The notes under the pieces: generated by a model
What the model was told of the DNA's origin: nothing
The model's database searches: none
Seen by the model: only the letters and a program-made list of their open reading frames with translations
In this document: in pieces, positions 20,201 through 30,214 of the stretch
Layout: each line of letters starts with the position of its first letter
Numbering within the stretch: the stretch's first letter is position 1
From: a virus
DNA: 40,940 bases
Reading direction: 5' to 3' (one strand)
Virus record (IMG/VR): IMGVR_UViG_3300042923_000849
Span: 1 to 40,940 of that record
Position numbers and translations under genes: made by a program

Positions 20201-20404
20201 TTACGGCTCACGTTCGGCGGGCAGCGATCTGAGCCACCGCTGTCCCTCTTCGCGGAGGATGAGCGGCTTCGCTCCCGCGTATGAGGGGGTGAGCTTGTTC
20301 GCGGTGATCTGCTGCCGGATGAATTCCTTCGACAGCGACACGGCGGTCGCGAACTCGTCGAGGGAGTACGCGAGCTTGTCGAGTACCGGGGTCTGCGTCG
20401 TCAT
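20201..20404 (-). CDS. Excisionase/MerR-type DNA-binding protein
   Basis: The 67-residue protein has the HTH_17/excisionase plan: YSLDEFATAVSLSKEFIRQQITANKLTPSYAGAKPLILREEGQRWLRSL, that is a helix-turn-helix followed by a short wing. It could be the excisionase, acting with the integrase at attP, or an early regulator. It is the second gene of the early operon and would be made as lysogeny breaks, which suits excision. The ATG at 20404 overlaps the upstream stop as ATGA. Confidence 0.7.
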   Translation of the reverse strand: MTTQTPVLDKLAYSLDEFATAVSLSKEFIRQQITANKLTPSYAGAKPLILREEGQRWLRSLPAEREP

Positions 20405-21071: not shown

Positions 21072-21509
21072 TTGCGCGAACTGCTCGCTCACGCATCGAC
21101 GCTGGGCGTCTCCGTGCATGTGGCGCACCTCCCGGCCCCGTACCGCGGGTACTACGACTCCGACAGACGGATGGTCGTGTACGGGTTCGACCTGACACCC
21201 ATCGAACGGCGATGCGTCCTCGCGCACGAACTCGGGCACGCGTTCTACGACCACCGGTGCCGTGGGCATCAGGCGTCGGAGGACGCCGCCGACCTGTACG
21301 CCGCGCATCTCCTCATTGACCCCGCCGAGTACGCGGAGGTGGAGGCGGTCTACCCGTCGGTGGAGACGATCGCGGAAGAACTGGGGGTCACCGTTGACCT
21401 CGTGCGCATCTTCCAGGAACGCAGTCTCACCCGGCTCCGCGGCATCACGTACGCGCGGTCACGGATGGGCGTGGGCCAGTTCCGGCACGCCTGGGCGCAC
21501 CAGAACTAG
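21072..21509 (+). CDS. ImmA-like metallopeptidase
   Basis: The 145-residue protein starts at TTG 21072 with AGGGGGAG upstream. It contains VLAHELGHAFYDHRC with the zinc site H52-E53-x-x-H56 and a downstream SEDAADLYAAHLLI segment supplying the third ligand, the pattern of the ImmA/IrrE family (DUF955). In ICEBs1 and many phages ImmA cleaves the partner repressor after DNA damage. Here it follows the repressor by twelve bases, so the same pairing is likely. Its stop shares CTAG with the stop of the convergent integrase gene. Confidence 0.88.
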   Translation: MRELLAHASTLGVSVHVAHLPAPYRGYYDSDRRMVVYGFDLTPIERRCVLAHELGHAFYDHRCRGHQASEDAADLYAAHLLIDPAEYAEVEAVYPSVETIAEELGVTVDLVRIFQERSLTRLRGITYARSRMGVGQFRHAWAHQN

Positions 21510-22681
21510 GCGGCGGGCGGCGCGAGGAGCGCGCCCAGCTGCTGCATCGCCACAGTGAGCCGTGCCTGGTTCGCGCGGGACTTGTACCCGCGGGTCATCG
21601 CCCGAGTGGAGTGGCCAACGATCTCCACGATGATGTCCTCGTCGATCCCCGCGAGGTACAGCAGGTCAACGGCGGTGTGGCGGAGGTCGTGGAGGCGTGC
21701 GGCGCGCTGGATGCCGGTCTCCGCGAGGAGGCGGTTCCACGCTTTCGTGTCCCGGTCAGGGTCACGCGGCCGCCCGTCCTCCGTGAACACGAGACCCCAC
21801 TCGTTCGGTTCCATGGCCGCGATGTGGCGGGTCAGGATCGTGCGCAGCGGATCCACGAGGGGGATGATGCGGGTGCCGGCCGCCGACTTAGGTCGGGTCA
21901 GGTAGAGGCCGCCGCGCACGTGCCGCCATTCGAAGTCGGCGGGGGCGATGGGGATGCCGTCGTCGGTGAGCTTGAGGCGTTGCATCTGCCAGGACAGGTC
22001 GATGTACTCACCGACCCGGTCCGCTTCGATGCCGATCACCTCACCCCGCCGGGCGCCTGTGAGGAGCCCGGTCGCCCAGCGTGCACCATCGGGCAGGTTG
22101 GAAACGTGTTCGAGGAGGTGGATCGCTTCGTCGAGGTCGAGGACGTCGAGCTGCTTCACTTCCTTGCGGGGTGCGTCGACGAGCTTCGCCGGGTTCCGGC
22201 CGATGTGACCTTCGCGGACGGCGATCTCCAACGCGCGGGACATGATGCGGTGCGCGTTGAGAGCGTACGTCGACGTCAGGCCGCGGTCGAGGATCCGCTG
22301 GTGCACCTGCCGCACGGTGGTGGGGGTGACTTTGTCGAGCTTCGTCCGGGCGCCGAGGCCCGGGATGATGTGCTGGTTCGTGGTGGACCGGTAGCCGGCG
22401 AACGACTTGGGGCGGATCTCGTTGACGGCGACGTTGTCGAGCCAGTACGTGAACCACGTCTGCACGTCGATCGCCGCGCTCGGTAGGTCGCCGCGGGTCT
22501 CGAGCTCGCGTTTCAGTTCGGCGAGCTTCGCGAGGACGACCTTCTTGTCCTTCGACCGAAGCACTTTCCGGCGCCGCTTCCCGGGCTCCGAGGGGAGTTC
22601 GACGACAGCGGTCCAGTACTTGAGCGGCTGGGACGTGTCCTTCGGGACCCGGTAGACCGAGCCCTCGCCTTTACCCCTCAC
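21506..22681 (-). CDS. int: Tyrosine integrase
   Basis: The 391-residue protein starts at GTG 22681 (GTGA overlap with the upstream gene). The N-terminal arm-binding domain (about 1-65, EGSVYRVPKD...YWTAVVELP) is followed by a SAM-like core-binding domain (70-165). The catalytic domain has R211 (TGARRGEV), a lysine near 265 (TRPKS), H331-x-x-R334 (LHDLRHTA), H357 (EIVGHST) and the nucleophile Y366 (RGYKSRA). All catalytic residues are present. It should recombine the attP at 23.5 kb with a host tRNA-Phe gene. The frame extending beyond 22681 is not part of the gene. Confidence 0.95.
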   Translation of the reverse strand: MRGKGEGSVYRVPKDTSQPLKYWTAVVELPSEPGKRRRKVLRSKDKKVVLAKLAELKRELETRGDLPSAAIDVQTWFTYWLDNVAVNEIRPKSFAGYRSTTNQHIIPGLGARTKLDKVTPTTVRQVHQRILDRGLTSTYALNAHRIMSRALEIAVREGHIGRNPAKLVDAPRKEVKQLDVLDLDEAIHLLEHVSNLPDGARWATGLLTGARRGEVIGIEADRVGEYIDLSWQMQRLKLTDDGIPIAPADFEWRHVRGGLYLTRPKSAAGTRIIPLVDPLRTILTRHIAAMEPNEWGLVFTEDGRPRDPDRDTKAWNRLLAETGIQRAARLHDLRHTAVDLLYLAGIDEDIIVEIVGHSTRAMTRGYKSRANQARLTVAMQQLGALLAPPAA

Positions 22682-22917
22682 GACGACTCCGAACCGATCG
22701 GTTCGGCGCCGAGCACCCCGGACTCGATTAGCGCAGCCGCTGCAGCGAGGTGCTTCGCTACGAGGAAGTAGCTCGGGTCCAGACGCACCATGTCGATGTG
22801 CGGATCGGGTCGCCAGGTGTTCCGGTCGGTGCCGTACTCGGCATCCATGAGCACCGCGGCGATGCGCTCCTGCCAGGTGGGCGGTGTCTGCAGCGGGTTG
22901 TCGAGTCGCTTCGCCAT
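22678..22917 (-). CDS. Hypothetical protein upstream of the integrase (79 aa)
   Basis: The start is ATG 22917, which shares a base with the stop of the (frameshifted) DUF4326 gene in its ancestral frame. The protein has TPPTWQERIAAVLMDAEYGTDR and a helical DPSYFLVAKHLAAAAALIESG. It is coupled to the integrase by GTGA. In the deposited sequence this frame is continuous with the first part of the DUF4326 gene, but the overlap arrangement shows two genes. Function unknown. Confidence 0.6.
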   Translation of the reverse strand: MAKRLDNPLQTPPTWQERIAAVLMDAEYGTDRNTWRPDPHIDMVRLDPSYFLVAKHLAAAAALIESGVLGAEPIGSESS

Positions 22918-23307
22918 CACATAACCCCATCCGCGTGGTTCCCGTTTGCGATCTCGAGCAGGACGTCCGCGTGGCAGGGCTGGTCGAGTGGGCAGAAGCA
23001 CCATGAGGTTCTTGCCGCGCAGCTGCGCCCGCACTTCGCCCACCCCGTACAGGAGACGACCGTTCGTCAGCCAGAGACGGAATTCGCTGACCGCGGTGGC
23101 GCGGGCCTCTGTCTGGGTCGATTCGTGTGCGAGGGATGGACGCTCGACGTGGCGGACGACCCAGCACATGCCGTCGTCGTTCATCTGGTCGCACTCTTCG
23201 TGCGTGATTCGGAAGGGGTTGCCCCAGCGGGACGGGCGGGCGACGCTTACCGTGTTCTCCGGCTTGCGCCACCCCGCCGTCCGCTTCTGCTGAATACGCT
23301 CCGGCAT
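22917..23307 (-). pseudogene. DUF4326 protein gene, interrupted by a one-base frameshift
   Basis: From ATG 23307 (AAGGAG six bases upstream) the frame encodes RIQQKRTAGWRKPENTVSVA and RPSRWGNPF, the start of the DUF4326 family, up to LRGKNLM. The expected ending CFCPLDQPCHADVLLEIAN follows only after skipping one base at about 23001-23002 (CC on the plus strand), and then ends at a TGA overlapping the next ATG. Without the extra base the protein would have 129 residues. Either the phage gene is broken or one base is a sequencing error. The family function is unknown. Confidence 0.75.
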
Positions 23308-23427
23308 CAGTAGCTCCTTCTCCCGTGAGCAGACCACAGCTGTTGGTTGATGACACCGACGTGGGTGTGTCTTCTTCTGCGGGGTTCGAATGGCTTGTTC
23401 ATGTGGATCCTTCCGGCCAAGGATTAG

Positions 23428-23447
23428 GTGTAGCCATCCGTGTAGCC
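23428..23447 (+). repeat. Left arm-site pair for the integrase
   Basis: GTGTAGCC occurs at 23428-23435 and again at 23440-23447, exactly 12 bases apart in direct orientation. The same pair with the same spacing lies on the other side of the tRNA core. A further copy in inverse orientation (GGCTACAC) is at 23491-23498. These are the likely arm-type binding sites of the integrase N-terminal domain. Confidence 0.75.
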
Positions 23448-23537
23448 TTCGCTATTGGTTGGCATTGGCCCGAATGGGCCGTTATAGAGAGGCTACACCC
23501 CACATGTGGGTTATTGCAAGCCAAAATAGGGTCGACC

Positions 23538-23585
23538 GTTCGACTGAAAATCGAAAGGTCACCGGATCGATGCCGGTCGGAGCCA
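23538..23585 (+). other. attP core: 3' half of a tRNA-Phe
   Basis: The segment reads as the right half of a tRNA. It has an anticodon stem TTCGA/TCGAA around loop CTGAAAA (anticodon GAA, Phe), variable loop AGGTC, T-arm ACCGG-ATCGATG-CCGGT, the acceptor strand CGGAGCC and discriminator A. No D-arm or 5' acceptor strand exists upstream, so this is not a functional tRNA gene. Such a half is what a phage carries to restore the host tRNA gene upon integration. The exact ends of the shared core cannot be set without the host sequence. Confidence 0.85.
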
Positions 23586-23660
23586 CTGGCCCCTTTCTCA
23601 GGCTTCTACTGGGATCGGGGCCTTCTTAGTTTCCGCCAGTGTAGGCGTCGAAATGACCGG

Positions 23661-23680
23661 GTGTAGCCGAACGTGTAGCC
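23661..23680 (+). repeat. Right arm-site pair for the integrase
   Basis: GTGTAGCC at 23661-23668 and 23673-23680, again 12 bases apart in direct orientation. Together with the left pair this brackets the core at about 90-100 bases on either side. The pair lies just before the end of the DUF3263 gene. Confidence 0.75.
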
Positions 23681-25923: not shown

Positions 25924-26478
25924 CTATGGGTGAAGCGCGGACACAGCACCGACGTACTCGATGTGAACGAGTTGCCACTCGAACGCGTCTTGATGCAGAT
26001 TCCAGGCCGCGGCGTGGTTGACGAGCGCGTAGTGATACCGCCACCGGCCCACTCTTCGGAAATCGACGCATTCGACCACCGCGCGATCGACCAGGGTGTC
26101 GGGGTGTCGTAGCTCACCTGGATCGATCTCGACCCGGAGCTCCTTCGCTGCGTCGAACACTGGCATGGGCTGCATGAACGGGGCGCTGATCGTCGCGACC
26201 ATCGGTCCACGTCGGAAGTACCACGCGACGACGTCGACCGCGGGATGTTCGCCCTCAACGCTCAGCACCATCTCCCTCGCCTCCTGAGAGATGTGGAACA
26301 CCGGCCGAAGTGCTGCGCTCAGAGCCTCGATCGCGGCCGTCGCAGTCACTTCCGATCGCTTCGCTGCTCGTCTCGACTCGAACGCCGCCCAAACCGCGGC
26401 GCCAGCTGCCACGACCGTCCCCACAGCAACCAGCACATCCAGGAGCACGGAGAAGGCGCCGACCGGTGCGTGGCTCAT
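25924..26478 (-). CDS. Membrane-anchored protein paired with the acyltransferase (184 aa)
   Basis: The start is ATG 26478 (or GTG 26481), sharing a base with the acyltransferase stop. An N-terminal membrane helix (SVLLDVLVAVGTVVAAGAAVWAAF, about 10-33) is followed by a basic Arg/Lys/Ala stretch (ESRRAAKRSEVTATAAIEAL) and a soluble beta-rich domain of about 130 residues (DVVAWYFRRGPMVATISAPFM; GRWRYHYALVNHAAAWNL). The soluble part probably faces the cytoplasm. The family is not recognised. It is co-transcribed with the acyltransferase and ends before a terminator. Confidence 0.65.
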   Translation of the reverse strand: MSHAPVGAFSVLLDVLVAVGTVVAAGAAVWAAFESRRAAKRSEVTATAAIEALSAALRPVFHISQEAREMVLSVEGEHPAVDVVAWYFRRGPMVATISAPFMQPMPVFDAAKELRVEIDPGELRHPDTLVDRAVVECVDFRRVGRWRYHYALVNHAAAWNLHQDAFEWQLVHIEYVGAVSALHP

Positions 26479-27644
26479 CACCGGCCCGCTTCAGTCCTCT
26501 GTGCCTCGCGCGAACCCTTGCGAAACTCGGCCTTCTGGTGCGTGGTGATGAAGTGCCGCTCGACGAGCCGGTGGAACACGTAAGCCAGCGCGCCGGCCGC
26601 GGGCAGGACGACTCCCAGCATGACGATCAGCTGCAGCCACGTCGGCAGGCCGAGCGGAAGCAGGAGCAGGTTCCCGAGCGCCAGCATCGGCGAGTGGATC
26701 AGGTACAAGCTGTACGACCAGAGGCCGACCCAGACCAAGAACCGAGTCTCGAGGATGCGGTGCAGCCAGGTGCGGCGGCCGTCCAGGGACGCCGCGGCGA
26801 GCCAGAGCAGCGCTAGAGCAATCGCCGCGCCGATGAGCGACTCTGAGTAAAGGTTCCGCGCTTCTGCGCTGTCGGGGTCGATGTACAGCCAGCCGACCGC
26901 TGCGACGAACATGATCAATGCGGGCCATCCCGCCTTGAACCGGGTGCGGCGTACAGCGAGGAAGGCGGCGAGCATGCCCATGCCGAAGAGACCGATTAGC
27001 CAGAAGTGCGCGGCGCCAACGTTCGGCACGAACCGGCTCAGGGCAAAGCCGAGCCCTATCGCGATCGCGGTTGTCCACCACGGCCCGAGACGACGCCAGA
27101 GCGGCAGCAACACGAGCGGCATCAGGAAGTAGATCTGCCACTCAGTGGCGATCGACCAGGCGGGACCGTTGATCTGGTAGATCCACTCGGGCGACAGGTT
27201 GTGCACGACGAGCAGGTGCGAGACCACGCCGCCGATCGTCACCGGAATCTTGTTGTCCCAGGCGGTGCCCGACTGCACCTGCAGCACGGGGATCGTCCAG
27301 ATCATGATGAGGAACAGCAGCAACGACGCATAGTACGGCGGAAGGATGCGCTTCGCGCGCCGGCCGATGTACCTGCCGAACCCACCGCGCAGCTCGAGGT
27401 CTTCGGACCGCGCCACGGGGAGCATCAGCACGAAGCCCGACAGGACGATGAACACGGGGACGGCGTAGTTCCCGATCTCGGCGATGCGGTCCACCAGCGG
27501 CAGGTCTTCCTGCACGTCGCCGAGGTAGCCGGTGAACATTGTGGCGTGATAGATCGCCACGGTGAGCGCCGCGATAGCCCGCAGACCGTCAGCGAACTCG
27601 AACTTGGGGCGAGCAGGTGGCGCGGCAGTCACGGTCAAGAGCAT
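26478..27644 (-). CDS. Membrane acyltransferase (acyltransferase 3 family)
   Basis: The 388-residue protein has about ten membrane helices and the acyltransferase-3 signature: FADGLRAIAALTVAIYHA (R22, H33) at the N-terminus, GYAVPVFIVLSGFVL-like sequence in the next helix, RYIGRRAKRILPPYY, and GPAWSIATEWQIYFLMPL with a conserved glutamate. Such enzymes (OatA, O-antigen and glycan acetylases) transfer acetyl groups to surface carbohydrates. In a temperate phage this suggests modification of the host surface receptor and exclusion of other phages. It starts at ATG 27644 with AGGGA upstream and lies outside the late operon, between two terminators. Confidence 0.9.
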   Translation of the reverse strand: MLLTVTAAPPARPKFEFADGLRAIAALTVAIYHATMFTGYLGDVQEDLPLVDRIAEIGNYAVPVFIVLSGFVLMLPVARSEDLELRGGFGRYIGRRAKRILPPYYASLLLFLIMIWTIPVLQVQSGTAWDNKIPVTIGGVVSHLLVVHNLSPEWIYQINGPAWSIATEWQIYFLMPLVLLPLWRRLGPWWTTAIAIGLGFALSRFVPNVGAAHFWLIGLFGMGMLAAFLAVRRTRFKAGWPALIMFVAAVGWLYIDPDSAEARNLYSESLIGAAIALALLWLAAASLDGRRTWLHRILETRFLVWVGLWSYSLYLIHSPMLALGNLLLLPLGLPTWLQLIVMLGVVLPAAGALAYVFHRLVERHFITTHQKAEFRKGSREAQRTEAGR

Positions 27645-27665
27645 GGCAGATCCCTGGCACGCGCG

Positions 27666-27702
27666 AAAAACCCCCTCCCCAGCCGGAGCCAGAGAGGGGG
27701 TT
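27666..27702 (-). terminator. Terminator at the end of the late operon
   Basis: On the minus strand AACCCCCTC (27702-27694) and GAGGGGGTT (27677-27669) form a stem with a GC-rich loop, running into TTTTT (27670-27666). It lies 14 bases after the tailspike stop. This is a textbook intrinsic terminator and marks the end of the structural transcript. Confidence 0.85.
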
Positions 27703-27715
27703 CCTGATCGCGGGT

Positions 27716-30214
27716 CTACGGGTCGCCGGTGTTGCCAGCGATTCGTACGCCTGTCATCGTCGCGCCCGAAGTCGTCACAGTCGCGAGCTGCGTCGCCGAC
27801 GTCTGCAGATCGTAGATGTCGTTGTTCTGGATACGGCCACCCTCGAGCGTGCTCCCCGACGGGACGAGCACACCGGACTGGTCGCCGGCGACGGCCGCCT
27901 TCCCGTTGGCGACGATCTGATTGTCCGACACCGCGACGTAGCGAATCTTCCGACCCGTCGCCGAGTACAGCCGGACACCGGATCGACCGTTCAGGCGGAT
28001 CTGATTCCCGCGGATCGAGACACCAGTGATGTCCTTGCCGTTGTCGCCAGCCGAGAGCGCGATGCCCCACGACTTGTTCTCGATGATCTGATTCGCCTCG
28101 ACGATGCTGTGCAGGTAGTCGCGCGTGTTCGTCGTCGTCCCGGTGGGGGTCGAGATGAAGATGCCGATACCTTCCTGCGCACCGGGCCCGGTGCAGCCAC
28201 GGATCAGGTTGCCGAGGATCGTCGTGTGCAGTCCCGGGTAAGCGTCCGGGAGGGTGGTCTTCCCGACCCGAATGCCGACGTTGCAGCCGATGATCACGTT
28301 CCCCTGGATGAGCGTGCCAGTGGAACCGGTGTCCGAGATGCCGTAGTACATCCCGATGATCACGTTGTTCAGGATGCGGTAGCCGTGCACACCGAGGTCA
28401 GGGTCTGCCCCGGTCTGCGCCTCAGTGAAGATGCCGTTATGGCCCGGACCGTTCACCCCAGACGACTGCGTGCCGATGATGATGTTGTTCGCGATCAGGG
28501 TCGGCTCCGTGGCGCCGGTCCCCTTCGTACCGGCACCGATCCCCGAGCCGCCCGGGCCGACGCCAGCGGGCGCCAGGCGCCCCGGGCGCTTGATCACGTT
28601 GTCGGTGATCGAGCACTGGTCGTACGAGTGGTCGAACGGGATGGCGGTCGCTGGTGTGTTCCAGACGTTCATGTCGTGGATGGAGCAGCGCTGCACGTAG
28701 TAGATGTTCAGAGGCTTCACCGCCGACCCGTAGCCAGCGGTGTGGATCATCGCCTCCGCTTCGATCCCGAAGTCGTGGAAGTCGGCGCCGACGAGCGGGT
28801 TCACGGCGGAGCGCCCTGCACAGGTGAGCCAGTCAGACGTGCCAGCGGCGGACGAGTCACCCGGCCGGTCTGCCACCACGTGCACCCAGGACGCTTCCCG
28901 GCTCACACCAGCCCACGAGACATAGTTCTGGACGCTGAGCGGCGTGGTGACGATCGTGCGACCCTGCGGGATGTGGATGGTCCCCCCACCGGCAGAGACC
29001 GCCGCGACCTGAGCTGCTGCGAACGCTGCGTCGTCGGGGGTTCCGAAGATGCACCGGGCGCCGGACACGGTCGACGTTGCGTTGCTTCCGAGAGTCGCCA
29101 CGCCTGACGCGACTGACTGGATGACACCGATCCACACACCGTCGTTCGCGTTCGCGACGATCGGACCGGCGCCCATCACAGCGAGGGTCTTCCCGATGTC
29201 GCCTGTCGTGAAGGGGCGAGCTGCGGAAGAGACCGTGGGCTGCCCGGTGACGGTCGCGGCATCCGTGAGCAGGATCGCGTCCATCGCCGCGCCGTAGTCC
29301 GCGATGTTGAATCGGCTGTTGTGGCCGGGCTGGAAGTCAAGCCCGGCGGGGAGCCGCAGCGACTCCGAGACGGCGACCATCTTGCGGGCGGGGGTCGGGA
29401 GAGACGTCGCCCACTCCCATGCGCCGAACTTGGGTGTCAGGCCGGCGCTGGGCGTGCTGTAGACGCCCGCGAAGACGTTGCTGCCGAACGTGGTCCACTC
29501 ACCCGAGGTGAGCGTGTACGAGTGCACGGCGACGTCATTGACGAACAGACGCAGCACGTGGTCGTCGGTGAGCACGAGCTCGACCTTGTCGCCCACCTGC
29601 GCGACGACAGAAGTAGCGGAGCCGAGCGTGGTGTTCGTCAGGCCCGTGAGGACGGTGCCGGTGGACTTCTGCACCACATAGACGCGGGACGTTCCGGATA
29701 CGGCCCACCGCAGCAAACGGATGTCGCTCGCGTCGAACCGGCCGGCGATGAACCCGCCAAACGACGACGCCGAGCCCACAGCGTTGATGCCGTTGATGAT
29801 CACGCGGCTGACACCCACCGCAGACCCGACACCGACGTACATGCACGTCAGGCCCGTCGTCCCGGCGACTGCCTGCATCGACAGCCCGTCCGAGGTGACG
29901 TTGAACACCCCGGCCGGAGCATTGTCGGGCCGGACGATGATCGGGCTCACCGTGACAGTGGTGTTCTGTCCCTCGAGACTCGTTGACGACGAGTAGTCGG
30001 TGGGATCGATCACGTGACTGACGTTCGCCGATCCTTCCGAACCGGGAAAGTCGTACAGGCCGTCGTCGCCGAAGAAGTTGTCCTTGACGACGACAACTTC
30101 TTCAGCGAGCCGCCCGCCCAGAGCGGACTCCGCCTCGTTTGCGATCTGCGCGACAGCGCGCGCCCACGCGGTGATGCCCGGTTCATTCGGATTGACGTTC
30201 TCGTCGACGGCCAT
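27716..30214 (-). CDS. Tailspike with lectin-like and beta-helix domains
   Basis: The 832-residue protein has a short N-terminal helical segment (NPNEPGITAWARAVAQIANEAESAL) probably binding the tail. A concanavalin/glucanase-like beta domain follows (about 40-275; KVELVLTDDHVLRLFVNDVAVHSYTL). Then comes a right-handed parallel beta-helix from the NIADYGA motif near 305 to the end, with repeated coils such as ILNNVIIGMYYGI, IQGNVIIGCNVGI and IRGNQIRLNGRSGV. This is the structure of depolymerase tailspikes that bind and cut surface polysaccharide. It is the last gene of the late operon, with GAGGGGG before its ATG. Confidence 0.85.
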   Translation of the reverse strand: MAVDENVNPNEPGITAWARAVAQIANEAESALGGRLAEEVVVVKDNFFGDDGLYDFPGSEGSANVSHVIDPTDYSSSTSLEGQNTTVTVSPIIVRPDNAPAGVFNVTSDGLSMQAVAGTTGLTCMYVGVGSAVGVSRVIINGINAVGSASSFGGFIAGRFDASDIRLLRWAVSGTSRVYVVQKSTGTVLTGLTNTTLGSATSVVAQVGDKVELVLTDDHVLRLFVNDVAVHSYTLTSGEWTTFGSNVFAGVYSTPSAGLTPKFGAWEWATSLPTPARKMVAVSESLRLPAGLDFQPGHNSRFNIADYGAAMDAILLTDAATVTGQPTVSSAARPFTTGDIGKTLAVMGAGPIVANANDGVWIGVIQSVASGVATLGSNATSTVSGARCIFGTPDDAAFAAAQVAAVSAGGGTIHIPQGRTIVTTPLSVQNYVSWAGVSREASWVHVVADRPGDSSAAGTSDWLTCAGRSAVNPLVGADFHDFGIEAEAMIHTAGYGSAVKPLNIYYVQRCSIHDMNVWNTPATAIPFDHSYDQCSITDNVIKRPGRLAPAGVGPGGSGIGAGTKGTGATEPTLIANNIIIGTQSSGVNGPGHNGIFTEAQTGADPDLGVHGYRILNNVIIGMYYGISDTGSTGTLIQGNVIIGCNVGIRVGKTTLPDAYPGLHTTILGNLIRGCTGPGAQEGIGIFISTPTGTTTNTRDYLHSIVEANQIIENKSWGIALSAGDNGKDITGVSIRGNQIRLNGRSGVRLYSATGRKIRYVAVSDNQIVANGKAAVAGDQSGVLVPSGSTLEGGRIQNNDIYDLQTSATQLATVTTSGATMTGVRIAGNTGDP

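What the first reader, a model, noticed from the sequence alone, without database searches (positions are those of the whole stretch)
23538..23585. attP core is the 3' half of a tRNA-Phe gene
The segment has anticodon stem-loop with GAA, variable loop, T-arm, acceptor 3' strand and discriminator base in perfect register, but no 5' half. Together with a complete tyrosine integrase nearby this identifies the integration target as the host tRNA-Phe gene. The phage half would restore the tRNA on integration.
Basis: partly seen in the sequence, partly recalled or inferred. Interest (0 to 1): 0.65.

Follow-up and report, generated by a model that had tools for sequence, protein, structure and literature searches.

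The report
Phage attachment site in tRNA-Phe
This complete bacteriophage carries the last two-thirds of a bacterial phenylalanine-tRNA gene as its chromosome docking site, so that when its integrase inserts it there the tRNA gene should be rebuilt; this is a well-known strategy, here confirmed and mapped in detail for a phage of Microbacterium-like bacteria.

Summary
Confirmed, and ordinary in kind. Window 23537-23586 (50 nt, slightly wider than reported) is identical to the 3' part of an intact tRNA-Phe(GAA) gene found in 34 of 119 sampled genomes of the genus of Microbacterium sp. CSI-V; the window has no 5' half. A 170-bp near-exact terminal repeat marks the contig as a free, circularly assembled phage, so the site is attP. 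An intact tyrosine integrase (21506-22681, -) lies beside it. Its nearest relatives (MT835599, Nesterenkonia MAG, M. allomyrinae, Leaf320) have a tRNA-Phe 3' part at the same place. In M. allomyrinae a 44.5-kb prophage sits between an intact tRNA-Phe and a displaced 3' part. Added here: paired arm-type sites (GTGTAGCC twice, 12-bp period) flank the core at offsets matching the rejoined M. allomyrinae attP; the phage brings its own terminator; junctions place strand exchange in the anticodon stem-loop. The wider clade uses other tRNAs (Arg, Thr, Met, Lys); one relative, in M. telephonicum, disrupts tRNA-Arg(CCG) but carries its own copy. Integrase family and mechanism are published (PMC10865867), so: new member of a known kind. 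A conserved ~30-aa peptide gene between attP and int is unexplained.

The parts
23537..23586 (+). attP common core = 3' part of tRNA-Phe(GAA): position ~25 through discriminator plus one base
   Evidence: Identical to host tRNA-Phe genes; no 5' half
23539..23555 (+). anticodon stem-loop TTCGA-CTGAAAA-TCGAA, inferred strand-exchange region with inverted core-type sites
   Evidence: attL/attR divergence in Leaf320, M. telephonicum, CSI-V and 5K110 prophages; only copy in the window
23428..23447 (+). P-arm pair of inferred integrase arm-type sites: GTGTAGCC-N4-GTGTAGCC
   Evidence: All five GTGTAGCC copies of the window lie at attP, 0.48 expected; same offset in M. allomyrinae; paired repeats in relatives
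23491..23498 (-). single inverted arm-like site GTGTAGCC
23661..23680 (+). P'-arm pair of inferred arm-type sites: GTGTAGCC-N4-GTGTAGCC
   Evidence: left and right pairs co-vary among relatives
23516..23522 (+). GCAAGCC box on the phage side of the core, 23 bp before the anticodon stem; unknown protein-binding site (inferred)
   Evidence: Present at -23/-24 in 10 of 13 Phe/Arg/Met-targeting members including the window
23588..23622 (+). terminator-like hairpin that would replace the host tRNA operon's terminator at attL
   Evidence: -23.5 kcal/mol, z -3.1; similar hairpin after tRNA-Phe in M. allomyrinae attL
21506..22681 (-). tyrosine integrase, 391 aa (GTG start), SAM-like and catalytic domains; conserved R211, K265, H331, R334, H357, Y366 (roles by analogy with known tyrosine recombinases)
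   Evidence: PF00589 1.5e-10, PF14659 8e-7; phrog_1 3e-57; residues invariant
23307..23402 (-). 31-aa basic peptide gene MNKPFEPRRRRHTHVGVINQQLWSAHGRRSY between attP and int, function unknown
   Evidence: Conserved in 10 phages in the core-int interval with synonymous codon changes
20204..20404 (-). possible small excisionase/regulator (weak)
   Evidence: phrog_66, E 5e-4; no Pfam match

Best explanation
Window 23428-23680 is the attP of a temperate tailed phage of Microbacteriaceae-like Actinobacteria. Its 50-bp core copies the 3' part of tRNA-Phe(GAA). The neighbouring tyrosine integrase binds the paired arm-type sites with its N-terminal domain and the anticodon-stem repeats with its catalytic domain, and exchanges strands in or close to the anticodon loop (inferred). 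Integration puts the phage 3' part behind the host 5' half, so attL is a functional tRNA-Phe followed by the phage's own terminator, and the displaced host 3' part remains at attR on the integrase side. Shown: sequence identity, the reconstituted tRNA fold, the occupied junctions in a related prophage, the shared architecture. Inferred: protein binding, the exact crossover, and integration by this very phage.
For: 50/50 identity to intact tRNA-Phe genes. Free-phage state from a 170-bp, 99.4% terminal repeat. Complete integrase next to it. Nearest integrases carry the same core in the same place and orientation: MT835599 47/50, Nesterenkonia MAG 49/50, M. allomyrinae, Leaf320. M. allomyrinae prophage: attR core at C13:86397, intact tRNA-Phe at 130848, flanks matching the two sides of the window's attP. 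Rejoined attP has GTGTAGCC pairs at -109/-97 and +74/+86 against -109/-97 and +75/+87 here. A search with the arms alone, blind to the core, recovered an independent tRNA-Phe attP (L012) and other tRNA attPs, each with an integrase homologue beside it. All four viral contigs with the exact 27-nt core but no 5' half carry an integrase homologue of 44-48% identity.
Against: No lysogen of this exact phage was found, and the host is not identified beyond the tRNA match. The MT835599 core differs in the anticodon loop (CTCAAAA), which does not fit an overlap region that must match the host there; that record is marked UNVERIFIED. The integrase clade switches tRNA targets, so target inference rests on the core and not on the integrase alone.
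Confidence: 0.96

Rival explanations
1. The segment is an attR or attL of an integrated prophage and not an attP.
For: A displaced 3' part also marks attR in lysogens.
Against: Both flanks are phage: left matches the M. allomyrinae attR phage side, right matches its attL phage side; the contig closes on itself by a 170-bp terminal repeat; phage structural genes lie on both sides.
Confidence: 0.02
2. A degenerate phage-borne tRNA gene, formerly complete, unrelated to integration.
For: Phages often carry tRNA genes; the Rfam match is below threshold.
Against: Identity starts at the anticodon stem as in other att cores, is perfect to the discriminator, sits between paired arm-type sites next to int, and recurs with the same layout in relatives.
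Confidence: 0.01
3. The core is used, but integration does not rebuild a functional tRNA and the phage relies on its own tRNA (tRNA-dependent lysogeny).
For: A relative in M. telephonicum appears to do this at tRNA-Arg(CCG).
Against: The window has no tRNA gene and its core reaches the discriminator base, rebuilding a perfect tRNA-Phe.
Confidence: 0.01

Closest known systems
Arthrobacter phage Hestia (cluster AY) integration system, attB in tRNA-Thr-CGT, 52-bp core (PMC10865867 Table 2)
   Same: Related integrase (46% identical), tRNA 3' part as core upstream of int in the same orientation, tRNA rebuilt, no phage tRNA
   Different: Target tRNA-Thr; arm repeats GTGTACTC instead of GTGTAGCC
Arthrobacter phages Kumotta/MargaretKali (cluster FB), attB in tRNA-Met-CAT, 51-bp core (PMC10865867)
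   Same: Related integrase (41%), same layout
   Different: Target tRNA-Met
Prophage in Microbacterium allomyrinae BWT-G7 (G002:C13 86397-130890)
   Same: tRNA-Phe target, arm sequence and spacing, terminator, 57% integrase, part of the early region alike
   Different: Few structural genes alike at protein level; the tRNA stem sequence differs
tRNA-dependent lysogeny phages Fionnbharth/LeBron (PMC10865867)
   Same: Same integrase phamily by the paper's own grouping with Hestia and Kumotta; tRNA-overlapping attB
   Different: Those share only about 9-17 bp and need a phage tRNA; the window shares 50 bp and rebuilds the tRNA

Membership tests
tRNA-targeting tyrosine-integrase attP (tRNA-restoring class) | attP core identical to the 3' part of a host tRNA gene, about 30-50 bp | tested here: met
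   50-nt identity
tRNA-targeting tyrosine-integrase attP (tRNA-restoring class) | Joined junction folds as a complete tRNA | tested here: met
   ARAGORN tRNA-Phe(gaa) on the joined sequence
tRNA-targeting tyrosine-integrase attP (tRNA-restoring class) | Related prophages flanked by the core with intact tRNA at one end | tested here: met
   M. allomyrinae and Leaf320
Tyrosine recombinase (phage integrase) | Catalytic R-K-H-R-H-Y set and Pfam domain | tested here: met
   and invariant columns
Arm-binding (lambda-like) integrase system | Paired arm-type repeats on both sides of the core | tested here: met
Arm-binding (lambda-like) integrase system | Integrase binds arms and core and recombines them | not testable with these tools
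   needs protein and DNA assays
tRNA-dependent lysogeny (PMC10865867) | Short common core that fails to rebuild the tRNA, with a cognate phage tRNA gene | tested here: not met
   50-bp core rebuilds the tRNA; no tRNA gene in the window
Fionnbharth/LeBron integrase phamily | Sequence relationship to named members | tested here: met
   Hestia 46%, MargaretKali/Kumotta 41%, Yoshi 35%, Hestia, Kumotta and Yoshi listed in that phamily in PMC10865867 Table 2; formal phamily assignment not run

The most novel reading that the evidence does not exclude
The integration module of this clade includes a previously undescribed conserved micro-protein (about 30 aa, motif HVGVINQxxWSAHGRR) encoded between attP and int that controls the integrase or directs excision, while the arms and integrase stay put as the tRNA core is exchanged.
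Probability: 0.2. Interest if true: 0.5.

Novelty: new member of a known kind. Interest (0 to 1): 0.27.

Why it matters
It gives a fully mapped attP, integrase and predicted attB for a phage of Microbacterium-like bacteria. tRNA-Phe is not among the targets listed for this integrase phamily in the published table. The comparison shows tRNA targets changing within one integrase clade while the arm architecture is kept, and yields a probable tRNA-dependent lysogeny case at tRNA-Arg(CCG).

Tried and rejected
Megablast of 20 kb of the window against phage records: no match. Viral contigs holding integrase relatives L002-L005 start at or near the int gene, so their att sites could not be read. The repeat finder's other direct and inverted repeats near the site looked like chance apart from the GTGTAGCC family. 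A 12-bp-period arm scan with a fixed G...CC mask missed arms of the Thr and some Met members, which show other repeats by eye. I considered a tRNA relic, an attR, and tRNA-dependent lysogeny for the window and rejected them. The MT835599 anticodon-loop change was looked at as a possible retargeting to tRNA-Leu(CAA); no phage tRNA is in that record and it was left open.

Full report
Observation. The window carries CGTTCGACTGAAAATCGAAAGGTCACCGGATCGATGCCGGTCGGAGCCAC at 23537-23586 on the + strand. It is the 3' part of a tRNA-Phe(GAA) gene in full register, and there is no 5' half: ARAGORN finds no tRNA, a 5' half is absent with up to 3 mismatches, and the Rfam tRNA model matches only below its cut-off. 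The same 50 bases end intact tRNA-Phe genes, GGCTCTGTAGCTCAGTTGGTAGAG + core, in nine fetched loci. In the genus of Microbacterium sp. CSI-V, 34 of 119 genomes hold the exact 50-mer; the four fetched from that search lie in Glu-Asp-Phe tRNA operons. Joining a host 5' half to the window's core yields a complete tRNA-Phe.

It is an attP, not a prophage junction. The window is a virus record whose ends repeat 170 bp at 99.4%, so it closes into a circle; gene order (terminase, portal and capsid at one end, tape measure and tail at the other) fits a permuted tailed-phage genome. The tyrosine integrase at 21506-22681 (-) is complete, with residues R211, K265, H331, R334, H357 and Y366 invariant in its relatives.

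Relatives. A genome scan with the integrase alignment gave 30 loci, mostly Microbacteriaceae and Micrococcaceae. In most of them a tRNA 3' part lies on the opposite strand upstream of int, the same layout as here. The relatives nearest in the tree carry tRNA-Phe cores: MT835599 (47/50), a Nesterenkonia MAG (49/50), M. allomyrinae and Microbacterium sp. Leaf320, and further out a Schumannella MAG. In M. allomyrinae the cores lie 44.45 kb apart, one beside int without a 5' half and one inside an intact tRNA-Phe. The phage-side flanks at the two junctions resemble the two flanks of the window's attP, and the prophage also shares early-region genes with the window. In the Nesterenkonia MAG the phage contig holds a 3' part and a different contig holds the intact tRNA-Phe.

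Arm-type sites. GTGTAGCC occurs five times in the window, all within 253 bp around the core, with 0.48 expected: direct pairs of 12-bp period at -109/-97 and +75/+87 from the core and one inverted copy at -46. The attP rejoined from the M. allomyrinae junctions has the same pairs at -109/-97 and +74/+86. In relatives the left and right pairs change together, for example GTGCAACC in CSI-V and 5K110, GTGTNTCC in Leaf320 and GTACAGCC in the Schumannella MAG. A search of viral contigs with the arms alone, blind to the core, returned four contigs; all have a tRNA 3' part between the arms (Phe, Met-CAT, and Lys-CTT twice, the Lys pair being near-identical) and an integrase homologue beside it. This is the strongest independent support. 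That these are integrase-binding sites is inferred from known systems such as the cluster K mycobacteriophages (PMC3203893), where a terminator between the core and the right arm sites is also reported, as seen here at 23588-23622. A further GCAAGYC box sits 23-24 bp before the anticodon stem on the phage side in 10 of 13 members of the Phe/Arg/Met set; its role is unknown.

Where strands are exchanged. In Leaf320 the attL T-arm is phage-type while attR keeps the host T-arm, leaving ACGACTGAAAATCGTGAGGTCAC in common. In M. telephonicum attL and attR share only TTGGTTTCCGGTACCAAAGGTC; CSI-V and 5K110 diverge right after TGGTTTCCGGTACCA. Together these place exchange in the anticodon stem-loop for the clade, by parsimony. 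The changed loop in MT835599 (CTCAAAA) does not fit and stays unexplained.

Target switching. In a tree of 38 integrases, target labels are clustered but need 7 changes against a minimum of 4 (shuffled mean 11.7), so targets have changed several times. Published data on the same integrase phamily list Thr-CGT (Hestia), Met-CAT (Kumotta), Lys, Gly and Ile2 targets (PMC10865867); tRNA-Phe and tRNA-Arg-CCG are not in that table. A literature search did not find a tRNA-Phe site for Microbacterium phages, but only open-licence papers are held.

Side finding: tRNA-dependent lysogeny. In M. telephonicum (int 52% identical) the host tRNA-Arg(CCG) 5' half is followed by only the 22-bp core and then phage sequence; some 60 bases on, right after a GTGCATCC arm pair, the prophage carries a complete tRNA-Arg(CCG) with a different anticodon stem. 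No other tRNA-Arg(CCG) 5' half was found in that draft genome with the pattern used. This fits the tRNA-dependent lysogeny of PMC10865867 with a new tRNA and host genus; it has not been tested.

Conclusion. The phenomenon is textbook; what is added is the full attP anatomy, a supported host group and a clade-level comparison. Host assignment beyond Microbacterium-like Actinobacteria remains open.

Noticed in passing
window 23307-23402 (-); also L014 2890-2973, L018, L019, L006, L009, L023, L024, L033, L036 in the core-int interval: A conserved basic micro-protein of about 30 aa (RRRxxHVGVINQxxWSAHGRR) is encoded between attP and int in ten phages with different tRNA targets; many codon changes are synonymous; no Pfam or PHROG match.
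   Followed up: partly
L081 1475-1659 and L085 (Microbacterium telephonicum, G006:C3 277.8-315.4 kb): Prophage interrupts tRNA-Arg(CCG) without rebuilding it and carries its own complete tRNA-Arg(CCG) next to the P' arm: probable tRNA-dependent lysogeny at a new tRNA.
   Followed up: partly
L014 2706-2755 (MT835599): Otherwise Phe-type attP core with anticodon loop CTCAAAA and a broken stem pair, and host-like sequence after the core although phage genes continue on that side.
   Followed up: partly
window 22911-23309 (-): The DUF4326 gene upstream of int looks frameshifted: a typical C-terminal stretch WCFCPLDQPCHADVLLEIANGNHADGVM* is in another frame; assembly error or real. The terminal repeat of the contig also has one gap.
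   Followed up: no
window 23602-23609; also L051, L053, L060, L061, L067: Terminator hairpins after tRNA-Phe in hosts and phages repeatedly carry the loop motif GCTTCTAC; reason unknown.
   Followed up: no
G002:C13 81476-86397 (L061): A second, slightly degenerate tRNA-Phe 3' part lies 4.9 kb beyond attR in M. allomyrinae, suggesting a tandem or decayed second element at the same tRNA.
   Followed up: no
window 26478-28070 (-): Membrane O-acetyltransferase-like gene (PF01757, phrog_3333), a possible lysogenic-conversion or surface-modification gene.
   Followed up: no
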